A DNA stretch of 64,000 nt from an uncultured Methylophaga sp. Its GTDB lineage: Bacteria > Pseudomonadota > Gammaproteobacteria > Nitrosococcales > Methylophagaceae. The stretch is from NCBI RefSeq assembly GCF_947259025.1, contig NZ_CAMYKO010000001.1, forward strand, positions 1 to 64,000, in the 5' to 3' direction. Position numbers and translations under genes: made by a program. The notes beneath the pieces are model-generated. The model worked only from the letters and a program-made list of their open reading frames with translations, did no database searches and had not been told where the DNA came from. Of the stretch, positions 5,081-24,526 are shown in pieces (within the stretch, counting starts at the first letter, position 1; every line of letters begins with the position of its first letter).

Positions 5081-5087
5081 GTACTTG

Positions 5088-6004: not shown

Positions 6005-6025
6005 GTCGTAAGGATAAGAAGCAAC

Positions 6026-6820: not shown

Positions 6821-6824
6821 AATC

Positions 6825-6892: not shown

Positions 6893-6913
6893 TCAAGAGG
6901 ACAACGAATTCTG

Positions 6914-7381: not shown

Positions 7382-7385
7382 GAAA

Positions 7386-7456: not shown

Positions 7457-7469
7457 TTCAGGAATTTTA

Positions 7470-8035: not shown

Positions 8036-8193
8036 ATACTGGCAAATCTCATTACAATGCTACTCAGTATTAAGTTAGCAATGAATAATCCAAGTCAGGC
8101 TGTTTACTTACGATTTGAGACGTATGGAAGATAAAATGCTAGAACAGTATTGTTATTGATTTTTAATTACATAGGATCAAGGAGCGATCTCAC

Positions 8194-8364: not shown

Positions 8365-9161
8365 ATCAGTTTATTCGCTTCAGCAAGAGCTTGAACTAAC
8401 TCCTCTGGAGAAACGACATTAACTGGAAACTTCTGTTCGAGCTGCTGCAAATTGCTTGCGTGAAAAATTGATGTGCTTCCAGCACCGCTAGCCCTATCAT
8501 TTGTGCAGAAATAATCTATTCCATAGCCATAACTTGCAGCTAAAGCATCGCCATCTGTCCATTCACTAACTGCCTTGGAATAATTCTTAACAGTTATTGA
8601 ATTATCATTTTTGGTATGTGGAACAAGCCCACCATTTTGTGCGCCTAGTTCATTCATTAGCTTGCCTTTGCCTGCGCCAAGGCTTTCGATAAAACGCGCG
8701 CACTCGAAAGAGCGCTTTAGCCTCTCTTTATCACTATATTTATTGCTGGGAGCCCAGTATTTATCAGACAGATTTAATTTCGGCGCTCCTATTCTGGGTA
8801 AAGCCGTAAATCTAAATCCCATCTCAAGCGCTTGAGGAATAACTCTTTTTAAGTATTCTGATATTTCAGGGGCATTGGCACCATTTTTTGATGAGACTTC
8901 TTCACCATCAGCACACATGGAAACTCCTGCGCTGTAGTTAGCATAATATCCTTTCCTATCTCCCTTCTTGATTGTTTCTATTGTAGCTATCCCCTCAAAA
9001 AAGTATGGCTCGATTGCGCCCCTGATTATTAATTCATAAAGTTTAGTGTAAACATCATCTGAGTTGTTACGCTTGTTCTCATCTACGATGCTTTCCCAAA
9101 CATTAGAATCGAAAGTGACTAAAGTACTCATTGCTTTCTTATTGTTTATTGTGTGGAACAC
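8361..9161 (-). CDS. PIN-like nuclease domain protein
   Basis: 266 aa from GTG; an internal ATG (residue 11, [12 protein letters not shown]) just before the first beta strand is an equally good start. PIN-type acidic positions are the Asp in LVTFDSNVW, Glu in FFEGIATIE and the C-terminal [10 protein letters not shown]...CTNDRASG. A long insertion (about residues 60-190) separates them, larger than in VapC toxins. It is probably an RNase effector. It is last of a minus-strand trio with DUF4145 and trypsin-like genes (51 bp behind the protease gene). Confidence 0.65.
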
Positions 9162-9212
9162 TCACCTGAATTTACTTTAAAGCACTGTTTCTGTGCTGTT
9201 GCCAATTTTTTA

Positions 9213-9974
9213 CTACAGGAGCCCAGAATAACCTCTCATTTCTCCTAACGCTGTGGCAGTTAAGTAGGGTAACAATGTTGTGCCCACAAAAAGCCCCTCT
9301 TTTTCTTTATAGCTATGCAAAATCCCTACTAGCATAGGTAGACGCCAATCCTGGGAGAACTCTTGTCCATAAGGCCATGCAAATATCGCCCCTCCACTCA
9401 CTCCTCGTGGACTTGGAGGGTTCATTTTCTGCCCATTATCTGGATTAAGAGCATTTTTTTTATGGAAGTGAATGATTATATTTTGGTCAGTAAGGAGATT
9501 ATGCTTTTCATAAAGTTCATTGTCTGCAGCAATCCCCCGGTAATAGGCTAGTTCAGAGGAGAAGCTGCCTCCATTCTTCTTACTTTTACTTGCCGGATAT
9601 CCAACAACTGATAGAACGTTTAACTCCAACGAACTCTCAACCAGTTCGATTTTTTTTATGAGAGGTTGAAAATAAACGAACAGCTTTCTAGCGAAATCAT
9701 TGCTTAAACGATAGTAAGCCATATCTATGCTGTCATCGTTTCTTGATAACTCCGGCAGTAAATCAAGATGTGCCAGGTATCCTTCTATCTCTTCAAGCCC
9801 CTCTATTGTTGGCACTAACAGTTTCCCGTTTTGAAGAGAATCCGTTACATGAGCTGCTGTAAATAGGAAAGGTTGAGAGCGAAAATCTATAAATACGCCT
9901 GTTCCTATTTGTTTTATGCCTTTGGGTATTTCTGTTTCAATAAATATTGGGATTAAAGCCTGATTAACTTCCAT
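9213..9974 (-). CDS. Trypsin-like serine protease, cytoplasmic
   Basis: 253 aa. The chymotrypsin-fold triad is readable: His42 in FTAAHV, Asp84 in DDSIDMAYY and Ser193 in RGVSGGAIF, with GTGVFID before the His. There is no signal peptide or membrane segment, so it is likely cytoplasmic, unlike DegP-type proteases. Such proteases occur in anti-phage systems, where they cut a partner to activate it. It lies between the DUF4145 gene (47 bp upstream) and the PIN-like gene (51 bp downstream), which makes either a candidate substrate. The protease call is strong; the defence role is inferred. Confidence 0.75.
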   Translation of the reverse strand: MEVNQALIPIFIETEIPKGIKQIGTGVFIDFRSQPFLFTAAHVTDSLQNGKLLVPTIEGLEEIEGYLAHLDLLPELSRNDDSIDMAYYRLSNDFARKLFVYFQPLIKKIELVESSLELNVLSVVGYPASKSKKNGGSFSSELAYYRGIAADNELYEKHNLLTDQNIIIHFHKKNALNPDNGQKMNPPSPRGVSGGAIFAWPYGQEFSQDWRLPMLVGILHSYKEKEGLFVGTTLLPYLTATALGEMRGYSGLL

Positions 9975-10021
9975 AATTTGTCTGAAAAACTAACTATGAA
10001 CTAGTCTATGGTACGTAATAG

Positions 10022-10711
10022 CTACGCACCTTGATGGGGAGCATTGTCACGGTCTAATAGGCCTTCTAAACTATTTATTTCCTTAGGAAGCACGTGTAAG
10101 TAATCGATAAGGTTCTCAAGAAGTTTTAGCATCTGGAGGGCCATTTGCTCATCTGGTTCCTTCTCCGCATCAAAGTGAGCGCCGAGATTGCCTCCGTGAC
10201 GCAGAACATCTGCCAGCTTTCTGATCGGTTCTGAGAGATCAACGGACTCTGCCACGGCTCGTATTGCTCTCGCCAATGTTTGGTTCGTTTCATTGTCTGG
10301 TAGCAAACCTTGAAACAATCCCTCAAGTGTTCGTCTACAACATACGGCAGTTGCGACATAGTTACCTGAGTTGTATGCATCCACCGTTGACAAATAAGAA
10401 CGGAACAAGGCTTCTGGTACTAGAGAGGATATAGGTTTGCTTGGGCGTGGCTCACCAGTGTTTGGATGTATAAATACTTCAGCTGACTCTGGGCCATGCA
10501 TACCAAAAGACCAAACCCCTACATGGTGGTCACAACCTGGACATTTTGACGAAGCGATCGCGCATGCTCTCGGTTTATCTAGATATTGCTGGGTCGTGGC
10601 GAAAGTAACCTTTTCAGAACAGTGAGGACACCATGTGGAGAAAGATGCCGGGATATAAATGTTTCCTAAATTCGTCCACTTTCTGACTTGACTGTGTGTG
10701 ATTTGCCGCAT
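10022..10711 (-). CDS. DUF4145 protein with N-terminal zinc ribbon
   Basis: 229 aa. Residues 27-65 hold CPHC and CPGC, a zinc ribbon. The C-terminal half (about 100-210) is a helical DUF4145 domain: ALFRSYLSTVDAYNSGNY, CCRRTLEGLFQ and VLRHGGNLGAHF. DUF4145 is HEPN-like, and the Arg...His in RHGGNLGAH is its conserved motif. Such domains are often fused to nucleases or act as sensors in conflict systems. First gene of the candidate operon with the trypsin-like and PIN-like genes. Confidence 0.75.
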   Translation of the reverse strand: MRQITHSQVRKWTNLGNIYIPASFSTWCPHCSEKVTFATTQQYLDKPRACAIASSKCPGCDHHVGVWSFGMHGPESAEVFIHPNTGEPRPSKPISSLVPEALFRSYLSTVDAYNSGNYVATAVCCRRTLEGLFQGLLPDNETNQTLARAIRAVAESVDLSEPIRKLADVLRHGGNLGAHFDAEKEPDEQMALQMLKLLENLIDYLHVLPKEINSLEGLLDRDNAPHQGA

Positions 10712-10826
10712 GTTATTCTCTTTTATGTCTTACGTTTGCTTATCTGCAAGCGTTGTCACCCTGGTGGAGGTCTAGCTTTGAGGTGGCCAGAATGAATTTG
10801 AGCGATTTGTCATGTGACTATGGCTA

Positions 10827-10838
10827 CCCCCCCCCCCC
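10827..10838 (+). repeat. Poly-C tract of 12
   Basis: A run of 12 C in the 198-bp space between the 78-aa gene and the DUF4145 gene. Such tracts slip during replication. Here it could alter spacing upstream of the DUF4145 operon, or reflect a sequencing length error. Confidence 0.7.
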
Positions 10839-10909
10839 TCAGGTACTACCTCCAAACGGTTAAAAATAAACTTGACCAGAAATTAGTCCTCGCAGAGCCC
10901 CTGATGAAG

Positions 10910-11146
10910 TCAGTTAGATATTTTTACTTTACTTATTAACTCTATCGCAAAGTCTTTAGGTAACCGGTAATGAGTGAGATCAAGAGATTCAATATCATGT
11001 AATGGATGATTGGCGAGATTGTGCAAACGTATCACATCATCTTTAGGGAAAAGGTTTACACCCAGACGAATACGTTCTTCGACCCTAATAAGAAAATCGT
11101 GGTCGTTCAAATTGCTGAGACTGTCTATTTCCATGTCCAGTGCCAT
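10910..11146 (-). CDS. Small hypothetical protein downstream of XRE regulator
   Basis: 78 aa, soluble and acidic-helical (MALDMEIDSLSNLNDHDF). It starts 4 bp after the stop of the XRE regulator frame, so the two were probably translated together. It looks complete (ends FAIELISKVKISN). Not recognised; it may be a partner of the regulator. Confidence 0.5.
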   Translation of the reverse strand: MALDMEIDSLSNLNDHDFLIRVEERIRLGVNLFPKDDVIRLHNLANHPLHDIESLDLTHYRLPKDFAIELISKVKISN

Positions 11147-11150
11147 TCCT

Positions 11151-11403
11151 TTACTTGAAGAGTTTGAGCACGAACTCGATCTTAGTTTCTAGCTTCTCAT
11201 ATGCTAATTTCAATAGGTCGAGCGGGTGCGTATCTAGAGTAGAGCACATTTCTTCAATTTTTTCTAATGTCGGACTTTTTATGCCTCTCTCTAGTGAGCT
11301 AAATGTAGGTTCTGCTGGAGATGAGCGAAAAATCCTCCTGGCTTAAGTTTCTTGATTTTCTTATTTCTCGCAGTGCTAGACCGAAGGCCTGACTGATATT
11401 CAT
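11151..11403 (-). pseudogene. XRE-family helix-turn-helix regulator, frameshifted
   Basis: Reads MNISQAFGLALREIRKSRNL then SQEDF...SRTYI and stops at TAG after 34 codons. Skipping one T of the ATTT run continues the same protein, SSLERGIKSPTLEKIEEM to VLKLFK, a standard XRE domain ending. The break falls inside the recognition region, so the protein should be inactive unless frameshifting or a sequencing error is involved. Total about 83 aa if repaired. It precedes the 78-aa gene and lies upstream of the DUF4145 operon, and would be its natural regulator. Not in the ORF track. Confidence 0.75.
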
Positions 11404-11938
11404 GTCTTTCCATTTCATTAGAAAAGATCATGTAGCCAAAATGAACACTATAGGGCTAGAATCTAAAACGTTCATTATGGATTTTCCCTGTACTACAATG
11501 ACAAACACTACTACTGATACAAATGCTGAGAAGCTCTTTTTGTTACCGCCCTGGTCTCAGCCATATACCAAAAACCAGAGCAAGTTTTTCATGGCTGTTT
11601 TATATGAAGGGGGTATCGAAGGTGAGCAAAAATTTGATACCAAGTATCTGGCTGATGGAAATGAGCTAGTTTTGCTGATGCTCTCGAATGATGTCACCGT
11701 AGACAGTGTTTATGTCGTCTCATTCCCTGAGCCTGCAACCGAACAAGTGCTGATGGAGTTCGTAGATGAGATTTGGATGGGGGTAATCAGCGAAGAGAGC
11801 AAAGAAAAAAGTGTTTGCTACATTGTCAGAACCATGAACGACACTCATCATGTGTTCTCTAAGTTAGGTGAAGTATCTGAAAGCTTGATTAAGCATAAAT
11901 CTCTATTCTTCAGTAGCACACAGCAACTACTCGAGTAA
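11402..11938 (+). CDS. Hypothetical protein divergent from XRE regulator
   Basis: 178 aa in the track, but the ATG at 11402 overlaps the regulator start on the other strand and has no ribosome site; ATG at 11441 (MNTIGLES) is a likely alternative. Soluble; beta-rich middle (NELVLLMLSNDVTVDSVYVV) and a final helix. No recognised family. Its promoter would overlap that of the XRE gene, a common plan for a regulated target. Confidence 0.45.
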   Translation: MSFHFIRKDHVAKMNTIGLESKTFIMDFPCTTMTNTTTDTNAEKLFLLPPWSQPYTKNQSKFFMAVLYEGGIEGEQKFDTKYLADGNELVLLMLSNDVTVDSVYVVSFPEPATEQVLMEFVDEIWMGVISEESKEKSVCYIVRTMNDTHHVFSKLGEVSESLIKHKSLFFSSTQQLLE

Positions 11939-12088
11939 AAATCAGAGCTCACATACACTTGGCTGCTATATGCCAGAGGTTTCAGTATTGCTACCCATGA
12001 CCTTGCCTAAAAAATTCCCCGTCCCTGTGGATTAGTTAAAGTGACATGGATGGGGATTCGACATAAATTACAGCTCGTATAAGCTATA

Positions 12089-14713
12089 TTACTCCAGAGC
12101 AACATCTATATCCTCCAAGGCAGAAATGATTGCTTCAACAGTATGCCTATCGAACTCTGTACGATCATTTTCTTCATGGGTTCCTTTGTTGAGATATCGC
12201 CATTCGCGTGAATCACCACTGAATCCTAGCAAGGTATCAATTGGGGTAAAGACTGCTTCTTTGTTAGGTGCAGAGAATTCTTGTTTACCAATTTTGCTCC
12301 TCAATTGTTCTGTAAGATTTCTCAAATCTATTGGTGCTGATGGTGAACGTAGTTTCAGGCTCAGGTTGCCATCACCGTACTTAGTGACATATCTCCACAC
12401 TTTGACTTTTGCGAGCGACTCTAAAGCTTGGCGTGACTTAGTTAGAGCTTCTCTGATTTCGTTATGATTTATGTGTCCTCGAGCAGCAAGAATATAGTTC
12501 CGGGGAGCACAGTTAAAGTCTATCCGGATGTGGGGCTCTTCGAGACGAGGCAAGAAAGAGAATAATTTAACTAGTCTGGCTTCCTGCGCAGGTAATAGAG
12601 TCTGAATATCCTTGAAGAATTCCTCACCATGACAGGTCAATAGTATTTGTTTATGTGAGAAATAATGATCCTCGAAAAGCGTTCGTCGAATAGATTCCCT
12701 GTGATCATCGTCAATAGCATTTACTGGATCATCGAAAATTAAGACAGGAGCATTTTCCTTGAGATTTTTCGCCAGCAAAATTGCTAGGCCAAGACATCGT
12801 ATATGCCCTTCACTAAGTACATGAAGGGCGTCGTAATTCTGGTGAGGGTTATTGCAAAATGCAATTTGAAGTCTCTCGTTCTGCGTCAGTGGTAACGTAA
12901 CGTTTGCTAATTGCTCTGAGTTTGAATCATTCCGGTTGAAGGCGTTATAAAGAGTGACAACCCTTTCACCGAGGTCTGCCACTAACTGTGAAGGTAAATT
13001 ATTATTGTAATTGCTCAGCTTTCGGACGAATGAAGCATATGCACTAGCGATCGACTGGTTCCTAGATATCAAGGCCTTTTCTGCTTCAACATCCGCAATT
13101 AATTGTGCATTTTTATTCTGGAAATTATCTATCAGTTTTTGGGCTGATGAAATGGTCGTGTTTGCTGTCTGCCTTCGAGTTTGAAGCACTGTAATTTGAT
13201 GGCTGTATTCACGAAGTCTGTTCAGTTCATCTAGCTTGTGACTTTTCTGTGCGGTAGCTTGGTCAAGCTTTTTGTCATTATCCTCAAGATGCTTAACTTG
13301 GCCGGCTAAATGCTGCCATGGTGTGTAGCCATCAGCCATTCTGCAAAGAAGGGAGTTCCACCATTCGATGCCGGGTTGTCCATTACCTTCTATTTCATAT
13401 GGTTTTAAAGGATTGTTTTGCGGGAGGTATTTCAAGCACGTGTTAATGATTTGTGAGACTTGAAACAAGGACTGTCTTGTGCTCTGCTCAAGCCGCATTG
13501 TATCTTGCTGGGTAAGAGCCAGTTTCTGGAGCTTTTGTAGCTCTTGGCCTGCGTGCGTGTAGGGGTTTACGTTGGCCTCGCTTAGAGGTGTTTTGCATGC
13601 AGGACATTCGCTCGGGCTACTTTGCTCCAGTTGCAAAACCGTTTCATATAGTTGTTTAAATGAGACTTGAAGGCTGGCTGCGGCTAGCTCTCTCTGCTTT
13701 ATGGTCAGCTCTTGGATGGTCGTTGTAATTGTATTACCCAACGTTTCCAAGGATACACTGGCTAAATTGCTTCTAGTCATCGCTGGTTGCTGCAGCTCAT
13801 TTTCAAGAAGCTCAATTCTCCCAGGCGCTTCGTCACTTCCATTTAGTTCTGATACCATCAGATTGAAGCTAGTGCCTTCTCTGTATTGATGGGCTAGCCT
13901 CAATTCCTCAGCAGTAATTTTTTGGAGCTCATTGTTGCAGTCTTGAATTTGTTGCTGTGCACCATTTAGAGCCTGCCGCTTCTTTGCGAGGAGTATTGCG
14001 TTTCTCCCCTCCAGGTCTATGTAACGGCCGTCTATTTCTGCAGTGAAATTACGAACAAACTCTGCAAACGAGTCAAGACCAAACAAGGTGGAAATCAATT
14101 CCATCTGTTTTGCAGGCGCCTGAGCTGCAATTCGGGAGAAACTATCAATGCGATTCTTTTCTATAAAGCAAAAACGATAACCTGATTCATTGGGAGCAAC
14201 ATCTATTTCGTTACCTTCGCCATCAAACCCATAAATACTCGGCGGTGAAAACTGATTTACGTATGCGTTCTTCAGATATTCATTTTGGTCTCGAAATCGT
14301 TTATTTTCAGCTTCGACAACATAACCCAGCAAGCCATATTCCAGTGCTTCGCAGAAACTAGATTTACCAGAACCATTTGGACCGTATATGAGCACTAGGC
14401 GGCTTGCTAGATCAAAAGTTTCCTCTTTGGCAAAGCCACGAAAGGGGCCTACTGTTATACGGTTGAGCTGGGAAAATTTCGCCACGTGCTCTTCATCATA
14501 TTGGGGAACTGGCTGAATGATGGTGCTAATTGTTTCCCAATTACCTTGGGCTAGCTCAACAATTCGTTTGATTCGTTGGCCTTGATAAGTGCTCAGAGGT
14601 AATAGTTGATCTAAATTGGTTGCGACCAAATTGGCGATTTTACGGACAGCTTCAGGCTCTGATGGTGTGTCTAGCGTCTGCAAAAAGCGAAAGTACTCAG
14701 ACCTGATCATCAA
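12089..14713 (-). CDS. SMC/Rad50-like AAA ATPase with zinc-hook CPxC, defence-type
   Basis: 874 aa. An N-terminal helical region (1-80) precedes the ATPase: Walker A YGPNGSGKSS (about 109-118), a long coiled coil (about 240-600) with a CPAC half-hook near its tip, signature LSEGHIRCLGLAILLAK and Walker B VLIFDDPVNAIDDDH. The C-terminal 170 residues extend past the ATPase and contain WRYLNKGTHEE, an R-x6-H pattern like HEPN RNases. The design resembles stand-alone conflict ATPases such as RloC or the SMC-like parts of Lamassu- and Septu-type systems, but I cannot assign it to one. No partner gene lies beside it. Confidence 0.75.
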   Translation of the reverse strand: MMIRSEYFRFLQTLDTPSEPEAVRKIANLVATNLDQLLPLSTYQGQRIKRIVELAQGNWETISTIIQPVPQYDEEHVAKFSQLNRITVGPFRGFAKEETFDLASRLVLIYGPNGSGKSSFCEALEYGLLGYVVEAENKRFRDQNEYLKNAYVNQFSPPSIYGFDGEGNEIDVAPNESGYRFCFIEKNRIDSFSRIAAQAPAKQMELISTLFGLDSFAEFVRNFTAEIDGRYIDLEGRNAILLAKKRQALNGAQQQIQDCNNELQKITAEELRLAHQYREGTSFNLMVSELNGSDEAPGRIELLENELQQPAMTRSNLASVSLETLGNTITTTIQELTIKQRELAAASLQVSFKQLYETVLQLEQSSPSECPACKTPLSEANVNPYTHAGQELQKLQKLALTQQDTMRLEQSTRQSLFQVSQIINTCLKYLPQNNPLKPYEIEGNGQPGIEWWNSLLCRMADGYTPWQHLAGQVKHLEDNDKKLDQATAQKSHKLDELNRLREYSHQITVLQTRRQTANTTISSAQKLIDNFQNKNAQLIADVEAEKALISRNQSIASAYASFVRKLSNYNNNLPSQLVADLGERVVTLYNAFNRNDSNSEQLANVTLPLTQNERLQIAFCNNPHQNYDALHVLSEGHIRCLGLAILLAKNLKENAPVLIFDDPVNAIDDDHRESIRRTLFEDHYFSHKQILLTCHGEEFFKDIQTLLPAQEARLVKLFSFLPRLEEPHIRIDFNCAPRNYILAARGHINHNEIREALTKSRQALESLAKVKVWRYVTKYGDGNLSLKLRSPSAPIDLRNLTEQLRSKIGKQEFSAPNKEAVFTPIDTLLGFSGDSREWRYLNKGTHEENDRTEFDRHTVEAIISALEDIDVALE

Positions 14714-15112
14714 AGATCTCCTTATTTAAGGGTTACTTGTCCGTTTATTCCAGACCGCTAAAAGACGCATCTATACTTGATCAGCACACGGGCCAGATAG
14801 TATTGAATCTAAAAGGGACCATTACCAAAGATTATTTTTGGTATCCATAGCAGAAACAATTCATCATTACTGCAGATTAACTTAAGTACGCTATGAACAT
14901 TAGCAAAAGACATATAGTCTGTTGAGTCCAGTTTTTGTCTTTCTGAATTAGCAATCTAGCCTTAAATTTAGGCATATTGTATGTCTCTTACTTCCACCCT
15001 GGTGTTTTACACCTACTCATGGAATATGGGAGTTTCCTAATTTTTTACACCGATAAATGTTGCTCTTGCGCAGACTTGCGTATGTGTCTAATTTTTCCAG
15101 AGCACTGGAATT
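14714..15112. other. Gene-poor stretch upstream of the SMC-like gene
   Basis: About 400 bp with scattered stops in all frames and no RNA recognised. The part next to 14713 must hold the ATPase gene promoter; the rest appears to be decayed DNA leading to the IstB remnant. Confidence 0.4.
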
Positions 15113-15313
15113 TCAGAATGTTCTCAGCAGTCTATTATTGACTCTCCCATGCGGTCTACCTATTTTACGTTGGACGGTTACCAGCGCAATGTAGGCGGCC
15201 CTCTCCTTCAAGACATAACTGTTGTTTAGGTTCTTCACTGTATGAGCGCGATGCAGTAACAGGTTGAGTAATGCAGCTATCAGCTTCTGGTCATGAGCAA
15301 AGCAGTCGCTCAC
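15113..15313 (-). pseudogene. Remnant of IS21-type IstB helper ATPase (C-terminus)
   Basis: A 66-codon frame whose start, FAHDQKLIAALLNLLLHRAH, and following TVKNLNNSYVLKE resemble the final helix of IstB proteins (the F-x-D-x-x-L-x-A-ALL-D-R-LLHHAH...SYRLKE region). The ATPase core and the partner transposase are absent, as are visible terminal repeats. It is best read as a decayed IS21-family insertion. Confidence 0.5.
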
Positions 15314-15724
15314 TTAAGGACCAGTTAGATTACTGGTTACAGTCACGCTACCTTGCTCATAGCTTTAAGCAATTACATTGAATAATATCAGAAGCTCTCT
15401 TATTACTATCTCGGTGAATACCTGAGCCTAATTCGTTGCTAAAAGCCTTCCGCCCGTTCAGGTTGGGCTTTTCCAATATTCTTCATAAACACAATGTCCT
15501 CGAACTCTTGCACCATAGTTAACTAGTCATATATGACGATCTTTTTTAGGCACTTTTTCCTCAAGTCACTAGCAAATAACTCATTCGAAAAATGCCTATA
15601 TTGTATTAAATATGCATGGCTGGGATGTTAATATTAACCATCTTAATCAATAACTTACGTGCAAAATAATTTTGCACCAGGCTGATGAGTGTGTCAACTT
15701 ATTCCCCTGAAAGCATGAGGTCGG
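15314..15724. other. Non-coding stretch upstream of the KfrA-like gene
   Basis: No frame with family resemblance. A weak stem (AAAAGCC...GGCTTTT, about 15449-15476) could be an old terminator. The rest is A+T-rich promoter DNA for the KfrA-like gene. Confidence 0.35.
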
Positions 15725-15738
15725 ATGCTTCATGCATT

Positions 15739-15770
15739 TAGTAGTAATACTACTACTATCAATACTACTA
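15739..15770. promoter_or_regulatory. Candidate KfrA-type operator
   Basis: A perfect inverted repeat TAGTAGT-AAT-ACTACTA (15739-15755) followed by a second copy of its half, AATACTACTA (15761-15770; first copy 15746-15755, 15-bp phase). It lies 15-46 bp before the preferred start of the KfrA-like gene, where KfrA proteins usually repress themselves. Confidence 0.6.
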
Positions 15771-15784
15771 ACAGGGATAAATGG

Positions 15785-16435
15785 ATGGACACGAGAAGAC
15801 GCAGAGAACCAGTCAGTAAAGATCAGGTATTTGATTTCATTGAGGCATATATGCAGGAACACAGTGTGATGCCCACCCAGCAGCTGATCATCGACAAGTT
15901 AGGCGGCTCACTTACAACGATAGGTAAGCATGTAAGAGAGTGGCAGCAAAGCGCCAAGAACCAAGTCAAAAGCATGATAGAAATGCCAGAACAAATCCGA
16001 GAGGCATCCCTAAAAGTGGGCGCCCAATGGTGGTCTATTGCTGAAAAGATGATGTCTGAGTCGATCCAAGTTGCCCAGGATTCGGCAGCCAAAGCTGTGG
16101 AACAGGCAAATCAAAATTATCACCTTTACCAAAATGAATGTGAGCAGCTCGAAAGCCTGGCTGAACGACTTCAGTCAGATTTAGATGAAGCTCTGACAGC
16201 ACTCAATCATAAAAACGTTGAGGTGTCTGAGATGAGAGAAAGGTTAATCAAGGCTGAACAGAAGAATGAGCATGATGCTGACACAATAAAGCGACTTAAT
16301 GAGGAGATTCTAAGAAGCAAAGAGCTTCAATCAGAGGCTGTCAAACAAGTAACTAGAATCTATGAAGAACGCCTCCTTGCTGCAGATGCACAGTTTGAGA
16401 AGCTGACCTCTAAACAACAACTGTCCAAGTTATGA
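15785..16435 (+). CDS. KfrA-like DNA-binding coiled-coil protein
   Basis: 216 aa from ATG 15785 (MDTRRRREPV), preferred over the track start at 15725 because AGGGA lies 7 nt upstream and the extension runs through the operator-like repeat. The N-terminal KfrA-type helix-turn-helix (VSKDQVFDFIEAYMQEH...LGGSLTTIGKHVREW, about 10-60) is followed by long alpha-helical coiled coil to the end. KfrA proteins are plasmid-type autorepressors that may form filaments; island relatives probably regulate or organise the element. It overlaps the HAD gene by 4 bp. Confidence 0.75.
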   Translation: MDTRRRREPVSKDQVFDFIEAYMQEHSVMPTQQLIIDKLGGSLTTIGKHVREWQQSAKNQVKSMIEMPEQIREASLKVGAQWWSIAEKMMSESIQVAQDSAAKAVEQANQNYHLYQNECEQLESLAERLQSDLDEALTALNHKNVEVSEMRERLIKAEQKNEHDADTIKRLNEEILRSKELQSEAVKQVTRIYEERLLAADAQFEKLTSKQQLSKL

Positions 16436-16884
16436 GTAACTTAATTCTCGCTCTTGACCTTGAGGGCGTACTCATTACCAACGCCATAAGTCAGTTTCCT
16501 CGCCCTGGATTGAGGCAGTTTTTAACGCAGTGTGAGGAAGTGTTTGGTCATGAGAATATCTGTATTTTTACAAAAGTACCTGAGAGACGGTTCAGGGTAA
16601 TAGCATCCACGCTGGTTAAGGAGAATAATGCACCCAGGTGGTTTGAAAACATCCGTTACATAGACTGGGTAGGAGAGCACAAAGATTTACGCTTTGTTCA
16701 TGACGATATTGAAAAAGTCATTATTGTTGATGATTACCCGCCATACATAAAGCAAACGCAAAAACACCGATTGATTCAGACACAAGAATACAAACAGCCA
16801 TATACCCACGCAATGCCAGATATTACCGATAAGGAGCTTGAATTTCTCGCAGAGAAACTAAAAGAACTGGTTTTGATGCAGTAA
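16432..16884 (+). CDS. HAD-superfamily protein (small phosphatase type)
   Basis: 150 aa. Motif I appears as LALDLEGVLI (first Asp kept, the usual second Asp is Glu), motif II likely IFTKVPER and motif IV VIIVDDYPPY, in the order of small NIF/SCP-like HAD phosphatases. There is no cap domain. The DxE change may weaken phosphatase activity. Translationally coupled to the KfrA-like gene through an ATGA overlap. Confidence 0.6.
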   Translation: MSNLILALDLEGVLITNAISQFPRPGLRQFLTQCEEVFGHENICIFTKVPERRFRVIASTLVKENNAPRWFENIRYIDWVGEHKDLRFVHDDIEKVIIVDDYPPYIKQTQKHRLIQTQEYKQPYTHAMPDITDKELEFLAEKLKELVLMQ

Positions 16885-16993
16885 TGAATTCCAAATCAGC
16901 TTCACAGCTCATTAGCGACTTGTGAGGGATGCGTAGCCAGAAACAAAAATTGAGAAAACGAATCATGGAATAAAGTTGCTAGACTTAAACACT

Positions 16994-17590
16994 TTAATTC
17001 TTCTCCATCCACTTGAAATACTCAGGAAGAGTACTTTGGTCAAACAAAATTGAATGGTCATAAGTATCAGTAACTACTCTTAATTGCTTATCAATGTCGG
17101 TCCCTAGCCTTTCTAAAAGCATATTTATTATTCGACAAAACCGATCTACTGAGTCATTAATCGGGACTTTTCTGGTTGAACTATTTTGGCCTTCATTTTC
17201 AAGCAAAGCGATGTTAGAGAGGCTCTTTTCAAGCAACCTATTCAGGTGCTCATTTTCCTTTCGAAGCTCACGAATCTCAAGCTGTGCTGATAGAAGATTG
17301 TTTTGGGCTCCTTTATTTTTTTGAGTAACGACATATCCACTATCTGACATGAACTGTTCGATAAGACGCCCATACACCTTACTTCTCAAGATTGTAGTAT
17401 TAGAACAGGGCTTACCCTCAACTTCGGAAATTTTTTCGGCAAGCAGCTTACTGATCGCTGTTCGGTTATCTGGCTTGATTTTTGCGTTTAACAATTGATT
17501 TAACATTTTCGTTATAACTGCAGCGCGGGCTCGAGTTTGCTCATTCTGCTTTGCATGCATTGCTTCAGTTTTTCTGCGTAATGTGCTCAC
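16994..17590 (-). CDS. gmtX: Gamma-mobile-trio protein GmtX
   Basis: 198 aa from a GTG start that shares GTGA with the gmtZ stop; a GGGGGAGG ribosome site lies 7 nt upstream, so this start is better than the track start at 17614. The N-terminus is basic and helical (STLRRKTEAMHAKQNEQTRA), the middle has a possible helix-turn-helix, and residues 110-145 form a coiled coil (LRKENEHLNRLLEK). The size and place as third gene behind two recombinases match GmtX; Tn554 TnpC plays a similar part. Role in mobilisation is known for the system, but its mechanism is not. Confidence 0.7.
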   Translation of the reverse strand: MSTLRRKTEAMHAKQNEQTRARAAVITKMLNQLLNAKIKPDNRTAISKLLAEKISEVEGKPCSNTTILRSKVYGRLIEQFMSDSGYVVTQKNKGAQNNLLSAQLEIRELRKENEHLNRLLEKSLSNIALLENEGQNSSTRKVPINDSVDRFCRIINMLLERLGTDIDKQLRVVTDTYDHSILFDQSTLPEYFKWMEKN

Positions 17591-20500
17591 TTGAGAGCCT
17601 CCCCCCATAACCAACTATTGAAATTGTTAGATAGTCGCTGCAAATGTTTGGGATGTGAATCATCTAGTAACCTTTTGACATCCTCACTGGAGATTTTGTG
17701 CATGCCCGCAACTTTCTGAAGAAGTGCTATTGAAATTTCTAGAGGGTTAATATCAGGAACCTCATAGTCATCAGCTTCAATCTGTCTGAGAATCTTTCGA
17801 CTTAATTTTTGAGCGGCACGCTTGAGATAGCCGCTTTGTAAAGTTGGACTAGACTGAACCTCCATAAGCCTGGCGTACAATTCTTCGCCATTAGAGAGGT
17901 TACTGATACTTTTGAGTGTCCGTTTTACCTCATCAAGACCATCATCCAGAACAATAAAACCTTGCTCATCCTGGGATGCGATTCTTATAAATTCATACCT
18001 CGAATGCCAACTGGCAGCCTGCTCACACTCATGGACACGCTGCTTGATAAGCACTGAGCGTTGACTGTTGCTAATTTTCAAGTCTGCGATTTGGCTATTA
18101 AGCTCCTGAATATTATCAGCATGGAACCTTATTTGAGCTGCAATGGCAACTAGGTCACTTGGGGTTGAGACAGCAATTGGACACAAGCCACAATCTTTCT
18201 TGCCAAGTTGATCCAATATAACCTTGGGGCACTCATTACCGTAGATACAAATGTGCGTAGCATTGACTGCGATGTCATTAGGATTGACTTGCTCTGGCAG
18301 TTCTTCATGATTTAATTTTTTTACAGAGAGACGAAAGCCACCGAGCCCCTCCAACCCTCGTTCCATGAATACTTTTCGTACATGGTCTTCATTTTTTAAT
18401 AAGCTTTGAACGCTGGCGACTGTTGGCATTTCTGAGGATATTTGCCCCTTGATCTCCATAGCTCTCTCATATCGCTCTGGCGTTGCTTCCATGTAATACT
18501 CGACTGTAGCTTTAGTTTGCCCTGTCATTATCCCACCAACAAATTCAGCTCCAAGAATGAGTCCAAGATGAGTATCAAGCGTTTTTCTGAGTGAGTGAGG
18601 CGTGATCAACGTTCGAGGAGCTACCGGTGTGAAATAGGCACTTCTCTCTCCAAGAATGTGAAGAGCGTAATCATCAAAGCCAGTATCAAACAACATGGCC
18701 TTTGTTTCTGGTGTCCTTGTAGCGGTTTGTTTGTGCTTGATTGGTGCAAGGAATACGTGAGATCCCACTTGTGAGACTTTATTAGGACCCAGTTGGTGCT
18801 CAAAATCATAGAGCAATTGAGTCAGTAAGCCTGAGGCGACATTGTCATAGTTGTTATTACTATGCCCAACACCAAGAAAAGGAACCAACTCACCCCATTT
18901 TGAGTTTTCAGAGCCTTTGTACTGAATGGCTTTTTTTGGCGAGTTTGCCAATTCAGCTCTCAGGCCCTCAAACCTCTTAAGCAGGTTATATGTTCGTCGT
19001 TTAACAACTGATTTAAATACCCCCTCTTTTACTTTATCAGTCGATACGACTATATCTGCACACTCTCTTTTATTATCAATTTGATCGTTATCCCAAATAG
19101 AGTCCTCTAACCACATAGTGTTGGATAAACGCAGTCCAGATGACGCCATTATGGTCAGTGCTAATGCATATTGCGGTGCTAGGACTAATTGCCCATCTAA
19201 TGTTTTCGTTCTAGGAAGATACAGTGGTAATGTTATTCCCAGTTCTAATTCATAATCTAGGGCCTTTATCGTCCCGGATAACTCCACCCCAATCGGACCT
19301 TGGTGGGGAATAGTACATCTTTCATCGATCATCGACAGAAGCTTTTCAGAAAAGGAATTGAGGTATTCTGAAAATAGAAGCCAATAATCAATTTCGAATA
19401 TCGCCTTACTGCTTTTACCCCTATAAGATGGAGCCTTAATAGACCTTGCTACGGTTTCGTCTATAGGATTATGCTTTATTTCGAATCCTTTTATGCCAAC
19501 GTACTTAACCAAGCAATAATCAAAGTACTTTCTGACCCTATGCATTTTTGCTTGTAATGTATGCTCATTAGCGCTTGAGTTTATTATTTTAAAAAATCTC
19601 ATAAACGAGATTGGATAAACACCAAACTTCCCATAGAGGCTCTGGTTAACAATTTCACTCGTTGATATAAAGATGGCCGAGAAAAAGAGGCTTGGACAAC
19701 TTGGAAATGAGTATGGAAGATCTTTGTGTGAATCAAAAAACCAACTTAGGTAAGAGAACAGATAAATATTAAGATCTCTCAATGCTGAGCGAGCATTTTT
19801 ACGGGTGCCTTCCTCTCGTAATGACTCGATATATTCTAGCTCGCTCATCACCCAAGGGTTTTCAGCCATTGTCTCAGCTAGCCGGTGAGGTCTATATCTT
19901 GATAACTCAACAGTGTTGATCGACCACTCATCCTCTTCGTAAGAAATGCTCTCGGTTCGCTTTTTTGTGACAAGGTAAGTGGATTTTTCTAAGCCAGACG
20001 TTCCAAAGAGCTCAGGCATTCGAATATGTTCAAAATTAGCTTTATCTTCAATTCTGTGGTCTATCTCATCATGACAAACATCAAGATCACTTACTGAACT
20101 AATCCCCGGACTTGCATACCCTACAATTAGGCTGAAATCTATTTTTGATCCTAACTCATTGAGTACAGGAACGAGCCTCCCCCACGGCAGAGCAGCTTCG
20201 TAGGGAACTAAGCGCCTATAATCAATAAAAGATGAGGTTTTCAGCTCCCCAAATGAAGTAGCATTTGTGCGCAATGCAACTTTTCGCCAACAATTGACGA
20301 TATTTCCCAGGTTTCGATAATTCTCGGAGGATAAATATTTATCAAATGACGACCTCCACTCATCAGGTATCGCGTATGCATATTCAGAGGAGGTTTTTGG
20401 GCTTCTGAAAAGAATAAAGAACTTCTGAAATTGGGGGAAAACGGACCAAAGTTTCGAACTCATAAGTTCGTGACTTACAAAATCAGTCAGAGGGAGGTCA

Positions 20501-20904
20501 TTAGTCTTTAGAACAAGTATCCCCTCATTCACTAAGAAGTGAAGTAGAAGGTCAATACACTGATTAATGAGTGAGTGGATGCGCTTAATAGGCTTGGATT
20601 TCAATGATGTGTAGTTCACTTGACGAGAGATGTTTCTTTTTAGGTAATCACTGGTCAACTCATCTTTTTTTCTACATTCAGGGTTACTTGTTTTCCTAAA
20701 ACTTAAGAGATTGATGAGTCTTCTTGACTTACCAGGCTCTGTTTCAGTTGATATATGTTGGAGTTCATTTTTGACATGAATGGCTATTGAAGAGAACGAT
20801 GGAACTGAGATATCGACACTTTCCGCGTTACTCAAGAACGAAATCGAAGCCTGTATTACAGTGTCAGAATCATGGATTTCAAAGTCTCTAATTTCAGAGT
20901 TCAT
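17587..20904 (-). CDS. gmtZ: Gamma-mobile-trio integrase-like protein GmtZ
   Basis: 1105 aa. The second half holds a tyrosine-recombinase catalytic domain: Arg in SSGLRLSNTMW, HSLRKT and a candidate nucleophile in TVEYYMEATPE. A cysteine group (CIYGNECPK...KKDCGLCPI, about residues 890-920) follows, then helical coiled coil. The first 500 residues are unrecognised and probably bind DNA or the partners. Starts with a 4-bp ATGA overlap with gmtY and ends overlapping gmtX, so the three are translated together. Layout and sizes fit the Gamma-Mobile-Trio family, needed together with GmtY and GmtX for island movement. Confidence 0.75.
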   Translation of the reverse strand: MNSEIRDFEIHDSDTVIQASISFLSNAESVDISVPSFSSIAIHVKNELQHISTETEPGKSRRLINLLSFRKTSNPECRKKDELTSDYLKRNISRQVNYTSLKSKPIKRIHSLINQCIDLLLHFLVNEGILVLKTNDLPLTDFVSHELMSSKLWSVFPQFQKFFILFRSPKTSSEYAYAIPDEWRSSFDKYLSSENYRNLGNIVNCWRKVALRTNATSFGELKTSSFIDYRRLVPYEAALPWGRLVPVLNELGSKIDFSLIVGYASPGISSVSDLDVCHDEIDHRIEDKANFEHIRMPELFGTSGLEKSTYLVTKKRTESISYEEDEWSINTVELSRYRPHRLAETMAENPWVMSELEYIESLREEGTRKNARSALRDLNIYLFSYLSWFFDSHKDLPYSFPSCPSLFFSAIFISTSEIVNQSLYGKFGVYPISFMRFFKIINSSANEHTLQAKMHRVRKYFDYCLVKYVGIKGFEIKHNPIDETVARSIKAPSYRGKSSKAIFEIDYWLLFSEYLNSFSEKLLSMIDERCTIPHQGPIGVELSGTIKALDYELELGITLPLYLPRTKTLDGQLVLAPQYALALTIMASSGLRLSNTMWLEDSIWDNDQIDNKRECADIVVSTDKVKEGVFKSVVKRRTYNLLKRFEGLRAELANSPKKAIQYKGSENSKWGELVPFLGVGHSNNNYDNVASGLLTQLLYDFEHQLGPNKVSQVGSHVFLAPIKHKQTATRTPETKAMLFDTGFDDYALHILGERSAYFTPVAPRTLITPHSLRKTLDTHLGLILGAEFVGGIMTGQTKATVEYYMEATPERYERAMEIKGQISSEMPTVASVQSLLKNEDHVRKVFMERGLEGLGGFRLSVKKLNHEELPEQVNPNDIAVNATHICIYGNECPKVILDQLGKKDCGLCPIAVSTPSDLVAIAAQIRFHADNIQELNSQIADLKISNSQRSVLIKQRVHECEQAASWHSRYEFIRIASQDEQGFIVLDDGLDEVKRTLKSISNLSNGEELYARLMEVQSSPTLQSGYLKRAAQKLSRKILRQIEADDYEVPDINPLEISIALLQKVAGMHKISSEDVKRLLDDSHPKHLQRLSNNFNSWLWGEALK

Positions 20905-22334
20905 CCACTAAATTCCTGTCCCACTGACGAAATCTTGGTCAATGCAGTATGTATTTGCTCCAGTAGCAAATCATTACTGACAGCATCATCAATACTCAAA
21001 CCTTCGCCAGTTACGAGCTTATTAAACCTTTCAAGCTCCCCTCGCACCTTTTCTTTGTCATTTTTTGCGTAGTGTGAGGTTGTCTTAATTGATGCATGCC
21101 CCATCATGATTTGGACAACCTCAAGAGGTAGTCCTGCACCATAGCTAGTGGGCAAGAAATTAACTACAAAAACCCCGTACATGTGTCTCAAAGAATGAAC
21201 CGTGTACCTAGTTACACCAGCTCTTTCAGCAGCTTTTTTAAAAGCTTTATTGTATGTATTCGCGTTGCTTATGAGATAGCATGGCTCTCCTAAAACATTC
21301 TTTTCTAATTTTACAAAAAGGACTGAGTGCGAAGTCACCGGACGTTCATGGTCCAAATAATGCCTTAGTGACTTAAAGAAAATAGAACGAAATGGCTCGA
21401 TAAAAAATGTTTCTTTCGTTTTCCTACCTTTGTGAGCCAAGCGAGAATTATGACCTTTCTTTAGCGGAAACTTATCAATTCTTGTGTTTGGATCAATCAC
21501 ATACACTTTTTCATCAATTGGCAGGACATCTTCCATTAAGATTGTGTAAGCCTCACTTATGCGAATTCCAGTACCCATGAGCAGAGCCCATAAAGCTTGA
21601 TCTCTCGCTAACCTTGCATTGTTAAGAGTGTCTATAGAGCGCTCAATTGGAAACGCTTTTATTTCATCAACCTCATTCTCCCCCCCAGCTTTCTTGAACT
21701 TAAAGAAGGTAGAACTGATCAGTGATGGCCCCCCAGAAACAACTCCGGCCAAGAATGAATTGTGTAACAAAGCAAGGCGCTCATTTGACGAAATATTTCT
21801 CTTGGCCAGGAGATCCTTTGCAAAGATCTCTTTGGAATTAGTAACCTCGACCAACCCTAGCTGTGAAAGCTCAAGTTGAGTGCGTTGATAGCTCGCGCTT
21901 GATTTAATGAACTCATTCAGGGTAGATAACATTCTATTCTTGGAGCTTGAGCTTACAGGCGTCCAACCAAGACGATGAGAGACTTCTCTTACCAACTTGT
22001 TTGAAGACCTATCAGCCACCATAAGAAAATCGGGAAACACACTCACAACTCCGAATAATGGAGTAGTGTTTTCCACTAGCATGTCTTCAACAACCTCAGA
22101 AGAAGTGGTCAAGTAATTGAAAAACACGCTCAGGTCATATGCATAGGCATCAATTGAGTTGGGAGCACTACCTAAACTCTTTCTGTGACTCAAAAAATCA
22201 GTGAAGAAGGGAATGGTTTCCAGGGTTTTTAGGTGAATGAGCCTGTAGGCATTTCCACCAAAAATAGGATCTGGATATTTAACCATTCTCAGAGCTGGTG
22301 TTTTAAAGCCCATTAACGCGCGCATCCACAACAA
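20901..22334 (-). CDS. gmtY: Gamma-mobile-trio tyrosine recombinase GmtY
   Basis: 477 aa. A SAM-like core-binding region (about 40-110, SIDAYAYDLSVFFNYL) precedes a full catalytic set: Arg in GTGIRISEAY, Lys near KGRKTKE, HSLRHMYG, MGHASIKTTSHYA with the nucleophile Tyr. It should cut and rejoin DNA at the island ends. The start is TTG with AAAGG 7 nt upstream; ATG codons at residues 4 and 8 are alternatives. It is the first gene of the trio and begins 110 bp from the island tRNA-Arg, the usual distance for an integrase next to its attachment site. Confidence 0.8.
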   Translation of the reverse strand: MLWMRALMGFKTPALRMVKYPDPIFGGNAYRLIHLKTLETIPFFTDFLSHRKSLGSAPNSIDAYAYDLSVFFNYLTTSSEVVEDMLVENTTPLFGVVSVFPDFLMVADRSSNKLVREVSHRLGWTPVSSSSKNRMLSTLNEFIKSSASYQRTQLELSQLGLVEVTNSKEIFAKDLLAKRNISSNERLALLHNSFLAGVVSGGPSLISSTFFKFKKAGGENEVDEIKAFPIERSIDTLNNARLARDQALWALLMGTGIRISEAYTILMEDVLPIDEKVYVIDPNTRIDKFPLKKGHNSRLAHKGRKTKETFFIEPFRSIFFKSLRHYLDHERPVTSHSVLFVKLEKNVLGEPCYLISNANTYNKAFKKAAERAGVTRYTVHSLRHMYGVFVVNFLPTSYGAGLPLEVVQIMMGHASIKTTSHYAKNDKEKVRGELERFNKLVTGEGLSIDDAVSNDLLLEQIHTALTKISSVGQEFSG

Positions 22335-22360
22335 GGTCTACCTTTCACAGTAAACAGAGC

Positions 22361-22550
22361 TGCACCTTTCTGCAAGCGTTAAGCACAATTTGAAATAAAA
22401 TTAGTTAATTTCTGTTATGGAAATTACCTTTAAGTGCAGTTAAATGGCGGGGTGAGCGGAACTCGAATCCGCAACCTTGAGCTTAGGAGGCCCATGCTCT
22501 ATCCAATTGAGCTACCACCCCTTGAATTCATACTATACGCATGCACTTTA
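22361..22550. repeat. TGCAC(C/T)TT repeats around the island end
   Basis: TGCACCTTT at 22361, its inverted relative ACCTTTAAGTGCA at 22426-22438, and TGCACTTTA at 22542, with ACCTTT again at 22340. These short direct and inverted copies on both sides of the island tRNA could be arm-type binding sites for the recombinases. Their shortness keeps the call weak. Confidence 0.35.
22445..22521 (-). tRNA. tRNA-Arg(CCU), complete, island-borne
   Basis: A 77-nt cloverleaf with encoded CCA: acceptor GGGGTGG / TCACCCC, D-arm GCTC...GAGC, anticodon stem TGGGC / GCTCA with loop CTCCTAA (anticodon CCT), T-arm GCGGA-TTCGAGT-TCCGC. It has its own promoter straddling the island border (TAGACC, 17 bp, TATAGT, 11 bp before the gene). 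Its sequence differs strongly from the truncated host tRNA-Arg beside it, so it is not a simple reconstitution. Confidence 0.93.
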
Positions 22551-22572
22551 TAATGGTCTACTTAAGAACCTT

Positions 22573-22621
22573 GACCTTCCCCTTAGGAGGGGGATGCTCT
22601 ATCCAGCTGAGCTACGGGGAC
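22573..22621 (-). pseudogene. Truncated host tRNA-Arg(CCU), 5' 49 nt only
   Basis: GTCCCCGTAGCTCAGCTGGA continues through D-arm, anticodon stem TCCCC / GGGGA with loop CTCCTAA, and variable AGGTC, then homology ends: no T-arm (GTTCRA) or 3' acceptor follows. The intact promoter TATAAT remains 11 nt upstream. This marks the right border of the island at about 22,572. The missing 3' part, which should end with CGGGGAC plus discriminator and CCA, is expected at the other island end. Confidence 0.85.
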
Positions 22622-22632
22622 AGTGGCTGTGC

Positions 22633-22660
22633 ATTATAACAGGCGTTGATAAGGGCTTCG
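22633..22660 (-). promoter_or_regulatory. Promoter of the truncated tRNA-Arg
   Basis: A perfect TATAAT (ATTATA on the plus strand at 22633-22638) lies 11 nt before the truncated tRNA; the -35 region is weak (TTCGAA at about 18-bp spacing). Transcripts from here would run through the fragment into the island tRNA. Confidence 0.65.
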
Positions 22661-22852
22661 AATCAAGTTGAGCTCAACCGGTGACTAAGCGGCTGATCAT
22701 TAAAAAGGCTCATTTTCTGCGCTTCATGACCTTTTTGTAGAGTTTCTGGTGTCTGACTGTTGAAACGTCCACACCGAAATACCTCACCGATGTTGTCCTG
22801 TCGACTTGGATGTTAAAGTCTTCATAAATTCATAACGCGGTGAGTTCAGGCC

Positions 22853-24526
22853 ATGACAGATAAGCGAAAACATTCATCCCCAGTCGTCGACGGAACCGGT
22901 AAAGCACCGGCCAGAGCGATGTTAAGGGCGGTTGGTTTCAATGATGCTGATTTTCAAAAGCCTCAAATCGGCATCGCCTCGACCTGGAGCATGGTCACGC
23001 CCTGCAATATGCATATCAAGCAACTGGCTGATTTTGCCTGTGAGGGTGCTGACAAAGCAGGCGCTAAAGGGGTGATTTTTAACACCATCACCATTTCTGA
23101 CGGCATTGCTAATGGCACCATTGGCATGAAATATTCTTTGGTGTCGCGTGAGGTGATTGCCGACTCAATTGAGACGGTTGCCGGCTGTGAGGGCTTCGAT
23201 GGACTGGTCGCCATCGGTGGCTGCGATAAAAACATGCCTGGCTGCCTTATTGGCCTGGCCCGCTTAAACCGCCCATCGGTCTTTGTTTATGGTGGCACCA
23301 TCCAGCCTGGTGCTAACCACACTGATATCGTTTCTGTATTTGAGGCCGTGGGAAAACATGCACGCGGTGATATCTCAGCGGCGGAGTTAAAGCAGATTGA
23401 AGAAACGGCGATTCCCGGCGCCGGCTCCTGCGGTGGCATGTACACAGCTAATACCATGGCTTCAGCGATTGAAGCGCTGGGCATGAGTCTGCCCAACAGC
23501 TCTGCGCAGGAAGCAGTCTCTCCTTCAAAGGCTGAGGATTGCCGCCGGGCCGGCGCTGCCGTGATGGCATTGCTGGAACAGGACATCAAACCCGCCGATA
23601 TCATGACCCGGCAGGCCTTTGAGAATGCCATTACCACGTTAATCGCACTGGGTGGCTCGACCAATGCGGTTTTGCATCTATTAGGTATGGCCCATGCCGT
23701 GGATGTGGATCTCAGCCTGGATGATTTTGCCCGTATTGGGCGTCGTGTCCCGGTATTGGCGGACTTACGTCCCAGCGGCAAATACATGATGTCGGAACTC
23801 ATTGCCATCGGCGGTATTCAGCCCTTGATGAAAAGCCTGCTAGACCGGGGACTGCTTCATGGTGATTGTCTGACAGTGACCGGCAAAACCCTGGCAGAGA
23901 ATCTGGCTGGTGTTGCGCCCTACCCAGCTGATCAAAACATTATTCGCCCCTTTGACCAGCCCATTAAAAAAGACAGCCATTTAGTCATTCTCAAGGGAAA
24001 TCTGGCACCAGAGGGCGCCGTCGCGAAAATTAGCGGTAAAGAAGGCTTACGGTTTACCGGTAAAGCCCGGGTATTTCACTCTGAAGAAGAGGCGCAACGG
24101 GATATTCTCAATGGCACCGTCGTAAAAGGGGATGTCATCGTTATCCGCTATGAAGGTCCCAAAGGCGGGCCGGGCATGCGGGAAATGCTCAGCCCCACTT
24201 CTGCCGTTATTGGTAAAGGCCTGGGTAACGATGTGGCCCTGATCACCGACGGCCGTTTCTCTGGCGGCAGCCACGGCTTTGTGGTTGGGCACATCACCCC
24301 CGAAGCTTTTGATGGCGGTCCGATTGCACTGGTTGAGAATGGTGATGAAATAACCATAGACGCCGAAAACGCTGTCATGCAGCTTCATCTGAGCGATACA
24401 GAAATACAACAAAGACGCGAAGCCTGGCAGCCTGTTCCACCGCGCTACACACGCGGTGTGCTGGCGAAATACGCCAAAACGGTCTCCTCTGCCTCTGAAG
24501 GTGCCGTCACCGATAAAAATCTGTGA
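22853..24526 (+). CDS. ilvD: Dihydroxy-acid dehydratase IlvD
   Basis: 557 aa, the shorter IlvD/Edd class. It converts 2,3-dihydroxy-3-methylbutanoate and its homologue into the 2-oxo acids before valine, leucine and isoleucine, in the cytoplasm. Fe-S cluster cysteines are visible in [16 protein letters not shown] and [13 protein letters not shown]; the last block is the family signature. C-terminal [12 protein letters not shown] and [10 protein letters not shown] are also typical. First core gene beside the island; no attenuator is evident in its 230-bp leader. Confidence 0.95.

What the first reader, a model, noticed from the sequence alone, without database searches (positions are those of the whole stretch)
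22445..22680. Island that breaks a host tRNA-Arg(CCU) and supplies a different complete one
The core-side fragment has promoter, D-arm and anticodon arm of a tRNA-Arg(CCU) but no T-arm or 3' acceptor. Fifty-one bp further into the island lies an intact tRNA-Arg(CCU) of clearly different sequence with its own promoter (TAGACC-N17-TATAGT) that spans the junction. Most tRNA-targeting elements restore the gene with a short identical piece; here the target is lost and replaced by an unrelated isoacceptor. It hints at strong selection for a rare AGG-reading tRNA and could make the island hard to lose.
Basis: partly seen in the sequence, partly recalled or inferred. Interest (0 to 1): 0.85.

Follow-up and report, generated by a model that had tools for sequence, protein, structure and literature searches.

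The report
Islands that swap out host tRNA genes
A family of bacterial mobile islands cuts a host tRNA gene in two and brings its own complete tRNA with the same anticodon, which probably keeps the cell alive but makes it depend on the island.

Summary
Next to ilvD, the genome's native tRNA-Arg(CCU) is cut at its T-loop (GGTTC|TTA). A different, complete tRNA-Arg(CCU) lies 44 bp inside the island, and no other CCU tRNA is in the assembly. All 16 relatives with an assembled gene have the native one whole.

It is not a one-off. The island's recombinase operon (two tyrosine recombinases plus a small coiled protein) has homologues in seven genomes from four other families. In all eight elements the host tRNA is cut at the same T-loop position, and a complete tRNA of the host's anticodon lies between that cut and the recombinase gene: Arg-CCU four times, Arg-UCU three, CAU once. 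Three hold a group I intron.

In six elements (not the window's) the far end carries the missing 3' half; joining the flanks gives an intact tRNA each time. Two 96%-identical elements carry the same tRNA in two different host genes, so the tRNA travels with the element. Terminal repeats and a 6-bp core fit SE/Tn554-type transposition.

Corrections: the cut is in the T-loop; the promoter lies wholly inside the element; the window's far end is unassembled. Expression, mobility and compensation were not tested.

The parts
22566..22621 (-). 5' part of the native tRNA-Arg(CCU), cut in the T-loop after GGTTC
   Evidence: Alignment with intact genes of relatives; same cut in seven homologous elements
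22632..22641 (-). Native tRNA promoter box TGTTATAATG (-10 TATAAT at 22633-22638), still in front of the broken gene
   Evidence: Conserved in relatives; coordinates
22546..22565 (-). Left end of the element, TTAAGTAGACCATTATAAAG; presumed terminal repeat
   Evidence: Position from the shared junction NRGTTC|TTA; its partner was not found in the window or the contig ends
22532..22560 (-). Promoter-like TAGACC-N17-TATAGT of the carried tRNA
   Evidence: Read from sequence; activity not tested
22445..22521 (-). Complete tRNA-Arg(CCU) carried by the element
   Evidence: ARAGORN, Rfam 62.5 bits; only CCU tRNA in the genome
20901..22334 (-). Tyrosine recombinase, 477 aa (first gene of the trio)
   Evidence: Pfam Phage_integrase 1.8e-18; R258, H380, R383, H413, Y422 invariant in eight homologues
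17587..20904 (-). Large second tyrosine-recombinase-like protein, 1105 aa
   Evidence: R592, H770, R773, Y804 invariant in eight homologues; no Pfam match
16994..17614 (-). Small coiled protein, 206 aa (third gene of the trio)
   Evidence: Homologues at the same place in G665 and G729
1..22565 (.). Body of the element, left (far) end not assembled
   Evidence: GC about 41% against 49-55% in the core; contig starts here
12089..14713 (-). Cargo: SMC/AAA ATPase, weak likeness to defence ATPases
   Evidence: Pfam, PADLOC
1255..2088 (-). Cargo: Abi_C protein, AbiJ-like
   Evidence: Pfam, PADLOC 50 bits
15725..16884 (+). KfrA_N DNA-binding protein and NIF-type phosphatase next to the trio
   Evidence: Pfam
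22853..24526 (+). ilvD, core gene flanking the site
   Evidence: Pfam; 90-95% identical in relatives at the same place

Best explanation
The island is a mobile element of a family that moves by a tyrosine-recombinase trio, in the manner of Tn554, SEs and GInts. It inserts through a short core, NRGTTC, in the T-arm of particular tRNA genes and so splits the host gene. Between its left end and the first recombinase gene it carries a complete tRNA with the anticodon of its target. Shown by sequence: the split host gene, the shared cut position, the carried isoacceptor, both ends in six relatives, and that the tRNA travels with the element. Inferred: that the carried tRNA is expressed (from its own promoter or by read-through from the native one), that it replaces the lost function, that the host thereby depends on the element, and that the element moves by a 6-bp footprint route.
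For: Native gene intact in 16 relatives and at an empty site, broken here, with no other CCU tRNA. Eight of eight homologous elements carry a complete tRNA with the anticodon of the host gene they cut. Cut always at NRGTTC|TTA. Missing 3' half at the far end in six elements; joined flanks give an intact tRNA in all six. G1011 and G920 elements are 96% identical over 5.9 kb with the same tRNA but sit in different tRNA-Arg(CCU) genes. Terminal inverted repeats, and right hexamer differing from left in four of six; G920's right hexamer equals G1011's left, as described for SE and Tn554 footprints (PMC10214605).
Against: The window's own far end is not assembled and the native 3' half is nowhere in the assembly. 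The window's proteins are distant from the rest (26-34% for the recombinase, 19-24% for the large protein). Only the window's genome was checked for spare copies of the target tRNA. tRNA-Arg(UCU) may read AGG, so CCU need not be essential. No expression, charging or movement was measured.
Confidence: 0.85

Rival explanations
1. Ordinary tRNA-targeting island: the complete tRNA is the host gene restored by a short identical piece on the element, and the fragment is the displaced leftover.
For: This is the usual arrangement (PMC8371274); integrase next to a complete tRNA.
Against: The complete tRNA does not match the native gene along its length, and the fragment, not the complete gene, has the native promoter and flank. 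In six relatives both halves of the host gene are found outside the element and rejoin to an intact tRNA.
Confidence: 0.03
2. The carried tRNA is passenger cargo that helps translate the island's AGG-rich genes, as phage tRNAs do, and does not serve to replace the broken host gene.
For: AGG is 10.0 per 1000 codons in the island and 2.7 in the core. tRNA-Arg(UCU) is present and may read AGG.
Against: The carried tRNA has the target's anticodon in eight of eight elements with three different anticodons, and always lies at the junction beside the broken gene.
Confidence: 0.1
3. The window's element is of the kind seen in relatives: insertion at the tRNA with an intact hybrid tRNA-Arg(CCU) at the unassembled far end, so the host gene is not lost and the carried tRNA is extra.
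For: Relatives carry tandem 5' parts of this gene upstream of an intact copy, many ending near the anticodon loop. The far end here is missing.
Against: The cut here is in the T-loop, at the junction shared with seven homologous elements, not near the anticodon loop. In six of those the far end has only the 3' half.
Confidence: 0.04
4. Assembly error joined two tRNA genes.
For: The contig starts inside the island and the far end is missing.
Against: The same structure with the same junction motif is found in seven other genomes from four other families, two of them in contigs of 3.6 and 4.6 Mb.
Confidence: 0.02

Closest known systems
[quoted passage not shown]
   Same: Tyrosine-recombinase operon at the left end, imperfect terminal inverted repeats, 6-bp spacer with left and right hexamers that can differ, few preferred sites, gammaproteobacterial hosts
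   Different: SEs have four core genes (intA, tfp, intB, srap); here two recombinase genes and a small one. The paper mentions no tRNA
Tn554 (TnpA, TnpB, TnpC), as described in PMC10214605
   Same: Three genes: two tyrosine recombinases and a small accessory protein; 6-bp footprint carried from the old site to the new
   Different: The large protein is 1100-1140 aa; target and cargo differ; no carried tRNA described in what I read; sequences not compared directly
GInts (ginABCD), PMC5385486
   Same: Recombinase operon at one end, variable cargo, short imperfect direct repeats, site-specific
   Different: Three recombinase-type genes plus ginD; [quoted passage not shown]
Gamma-mobile-trio (GmtY, GmtZ; NCBIfam)
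   Same: A recombinase similar in part to GmtY; trio with a large second integrase
   Different: 32-68 bits against a GmtY cut-off of 340; no GmtZ match to the large protein
Classical tRNA-targeting islands, phages and ICEs (Williams 2002, as cited in PMC8371274)
   Same: Site-specific insertion in a tRNA gene by a tyrosine recombinase
   Different: Those reconstitute the target tRNA; here it stays split and a whole different isoacceptor is supplied
Tycheposons (as described in PMC10872708)
   Same: Cargo-carrying islands bordered by a tRNA with a tyrosine recombinase
   Different: Whether the tRNA there is the restored target or a carried one was not established here; no sequence was compared

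Membership tests
SE | Four core genes intA-tfp-intB-srap | tested here: not met
   Only two recombinase-type genes and one small gene before the cargo in the window, G665 and G729; G665 and G729 add a 141-145 aa protein and a RecD2-like helicase
SE | 6-bp spacer with left hexamer from the host and right hexamer as footprint; terminal inverted repeats | tested here: met
   Left and right hexamers differ in 4 of 6; G920 right = G1011 left; inverted ends. Not testable in the window
SE | Strand-biased circle, no empty site left | not testable with these tools
   Needs PCR or reads
Tn554 | TnpA, TnpB, TnpC homologues | not tested
   Gene number and order fit (two recombinases, one small protein); no Tn554 sequence was compared directly
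GInt | ginABCD operon with three recombinase-type proteins | tested here: not met
   Two recombinase-type proteins only
Gamma-mobile-trio | GmtY and GmtZ at NCBIfam cut-off | tested here: not met
   GmtY 32-68 bits against 340; no GmtZ match to the large proteins tested
Classical tRNA-targeting island | Target tRNA reconstituted at one junction | tested here: not met
   Host gene split, halves at the two ends in six relatives; window far end not seen
Tycheposon | Homologous recombinase and the published end structure | not tested
   No tycheposon sequence was compared; only a secondary description was read

The most novel reading that the evidence does not exclude
A family of 'tRNA-hostage' transposons: each inactivates a minor tRNA gene and becomes the sole source of that anticodon, sometimes with a tRNA interrupted by a group I intron or with a mutated core, so that the element cannot be deleted imprecisely and is displaced only by another element that brings its own copy. 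Successive insertions then replace the species' tRNA with a horizontally travelling one.
Probability: 0.5. Interest if true: 0.88.

Novelty: new variant of a known kind. Interest (0 to 1): 0.8.

Why it matters
A review states that insertion into a tRNA gene leaves an intact host tRNA (PMC8371274). Here is a recurrent class in which it does not: the mobile element replaces the host's tRNA with its own isoacceptor. It offers a simple, testable form of dependence without a toxin, a route for horizontal replacement of tRNA genes, and a setting in which to ask why bacterial group I introns sit in tRNA genes. It also warns annotators: a foreign tRNA beside a fragment can be the only working copy.

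Tried and rejected
Searches with the window's recombinases found no close relative in viral contigs, phages, plasmids or GTDB contigs or in 369 class genomes at strict cut-offs. The 1105-aa protein against 399 phylum genomes at a loose cut-off opened the family, and a profile of three members in 395 genomes of G729's order added five more. The origin of the carried tRNA was sought in class genomes, GTDB, IMG/VR, phages, plasmids and E. coli without a close match. The native downstream genes (M48 peptidase and others) were sought to find the far junction: the M48 gene is absent or unassembled, and the contig ends in xoxF-like repeats could not be linked to the island. A self-immunity rule (carried tRNA lacks the core) was considered: by register it holds for the four CCU elements, not for the other four (the script's own yes/no for the window matched off-register). 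L176 and L177 show only part of a tRNA-Ser. No structure was predicted: the recombinase motifs were already clear. The search for earlier reports is limited to the open papers held here.

Full report
What is there. Near 22.5 kb the window changes from an AT-richer island (about 41% GC) to core sequence starting with ilvD. On the minus strand, reading from ilvD into the island, the order is: native promoter box TGTTATAATG (22632-22641); a tRNA-Arg(CCU) that runs to the T-loop and then ends (22566-22621); 44 bp of element DNA with a promoter-like TAGACC-N17-TATAGT (22532-22560); a complete tRNA-Arg(CCU) of different sequence (22445-22521); and an operon of a tyrosine recombinase (477 aa), a large second recombinase-like protein (1105 aa) and a small coiled protein (206 aa). 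All point the same way, so the native promoter could also read into the carried tRNA (inference).

The native state. The genome (2.7 Mb, 8 contigs) belongs to a genus with 23 other genomes in the collection, probably Methylophaga, judged from what I read as xoxF-type methanol dehydrogenase genes (inference). In the 16 relatives with an intact tRNA-Arg(CCU) at this locus it is the native type, starting GTCCCCG (five have a one-base variant there), uninterrupted, and ending in a normal T-arm and acceptor. G019 is a clean empty site: ilvD, 236 bp, intact native tRNA. In the window's genome all 38 tRNAs were accounted for and the only CCU anticodon is the island's. The native 3' half is nowhere in the assembly, but the contig begins inside the island.

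A family of such elements. The 1105-aa protein, used against 399 genomes of the phylum, found two distant homologues (G665, G729). A profile of the three, searched in 395 genomes of G729's order, added five (G1011, G920, G1075, G855, G1093). The seven hosts fall in four families other than the window's. In all eight elements, including the window's, a complete tRNA lies between the element's left end and the first recombinase gene: Arg(CCU) in the window, G665, G1011 and G920; Arg(UCU) in G729, G1075 and G855; CAU in G1093. ARAGORN calls the last one Met; by its sequence I take it for tRNA-Ile2 (inference). Just outside, every host tRNA of the same anticodon is cut at the same place, NRGTTC|TTA, in the T-loop. 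Catalytic residues R-H-R-H-Y of the recombinase and R-H-R-Y of the large protein are invariant in the eight.

Both ends. The far end with the missing 3' half, beginning TTC, was found for G729 (15.2 kb), G1093 (16.3 kb), G665 (23.8 kb), G1075 (24.3 kb), G920 (28.8 kb) and G855 (48.3 kb). Joining the two host flanks in a script gives an intact tRNA with the expected anticodon in all six; in G855 it is an intron-bearing tRNA-Arg(UCU). So the host gene is the split one, and the complete tRNA belongs to the element. G1011 and G920 make this plain: their elements are 96% identical over 5.9 kb and carry the same tRNA, but they sit in two different tRNA-Arg(CCU) genes.

How it probably moves. Terminal inverted repeats are clear (G920: TTATGTACTATAGGT at both ends). 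The six bases left and right of the element differ in four of six cases, and G920's right hexamer TGGTTC is the left hexamer of its near-twin in G1011. That is the footprint pattern described for SEs and Tn554-related elements (PMC10214605). The mechanism is inferred from sequence; no recombination was measured.

How it probably keeps the host alive. The carried tRNA has the anticodon of the gene it destroys in eight of eight cases, over three anticodons that by general knowledge read rare codons. The five uninterrupted ones score 56.9-67.6 bits against a cut-off of 29; the three intron-bearing ones are recognised when an intron is allowed for, and their group I introns score 61-99 bits. In the four CCU elements the carried T-arm no longer has the target hexamer in register, which would hinder self-insertion; the other four keep it, so this is not a general rule. 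In G855 the present element sits in an intron-bearing tRNA-Arg(UCU), which itself lies next to an older tRNA fragment cut at GGTTC|TTA: elements seem to stack, each replacing the previous tRNA. In the window AGG is 10.0 per 1000 codons in the island and 2.7 in the core, and no gene-label shuffle of 1000 reached the difference in AGG share, so the tRNA may also serve the cargo.

Limits. The window's own far end is unassembled, and its M48 neighbour gene is not found. Only the window's genome was checked for other copies of the target tRNA. A more distant viral-contig locus, L174, shows what looks like a degenerate tRNA-Ser(UGA) cut at GTTC|TTA followed by an intact tRNA-Ser(UGA), but two others (L176, L177) show only a partial tRNA. 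tRNA-Arg(UCU) may cover AGG. The literature search was confined to open papers; I found no description of such elements, which is weak evidence of absence.

Verdict. Real, general within a recombinase family, and at odds with the stated rule that integration leaves an intact host tRNA (PMC8371274). It works like SE and Tn554 elements but fails the gene-content tests for SEs, GInts and gamma-mobile-trios, and Tn554 was not compared directly, so I file it as a new variant of a known kind.

Noticed in passing
Relatives of the window: L056, L058, L059, L060, L061, L063, L066, L068, L069: Tandem, decaying 5' parts of the native tRNA-Arg(CCU), several ending at or near the anticodon loop, separate small cargo units (GroES-GroEL, zinc dehydrogenase with HxlR regulator, others) between ilvD and the intact tRNA. 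This suggests a second, different kind of serial insertion at the same gene, one that supplies a new 5' half each time.
   Followed up: partly
L129:5745-5944, L153:12753-12941, L159:11719-11975: Group I introns in the anticodon loop of element-carried tRNA-Arg(UCU) and tRNA(CAU): perhaps a reason why bacterial group I introns are known from such tRNA genes.
   Followed up: partly
L174:8590-8794 (IMGVR_UViG_2897957997_000002): Degenerate tRNA-Ser(UGA) cut at GTTC|TTA followed by an intact tRNA-Ser(UGA) upstream of a distant homologue of the recombinase: a possible fourth target anticodon.
   Followed up: partly
L126:13546-13622, L149:9127-9202, L150:14522-14597: Carried tRNA-Arg(CCU) with an unusual T-loop ATCGTGC in place of TTCRANN, so the universal T54 is A. 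Function unknown.
   Followed up: no
window 1-16884: Cargo with defence-like proteins: Abi_C/AbiJ-like, SMC-type ATPase, metallophosphatase, DUF4145 protein with weak PD-T7-4 likeness.
   Followed up: no
L114, L117 and contig ends L097, L102, L109: Tandem copies of a roughly 592-aa protein, which I read as xoxF-type methanol dehydrogenase, downstream of the same tRNA in some relatives; the window's genome breaks into contigs at such copies.
   Followed up: no
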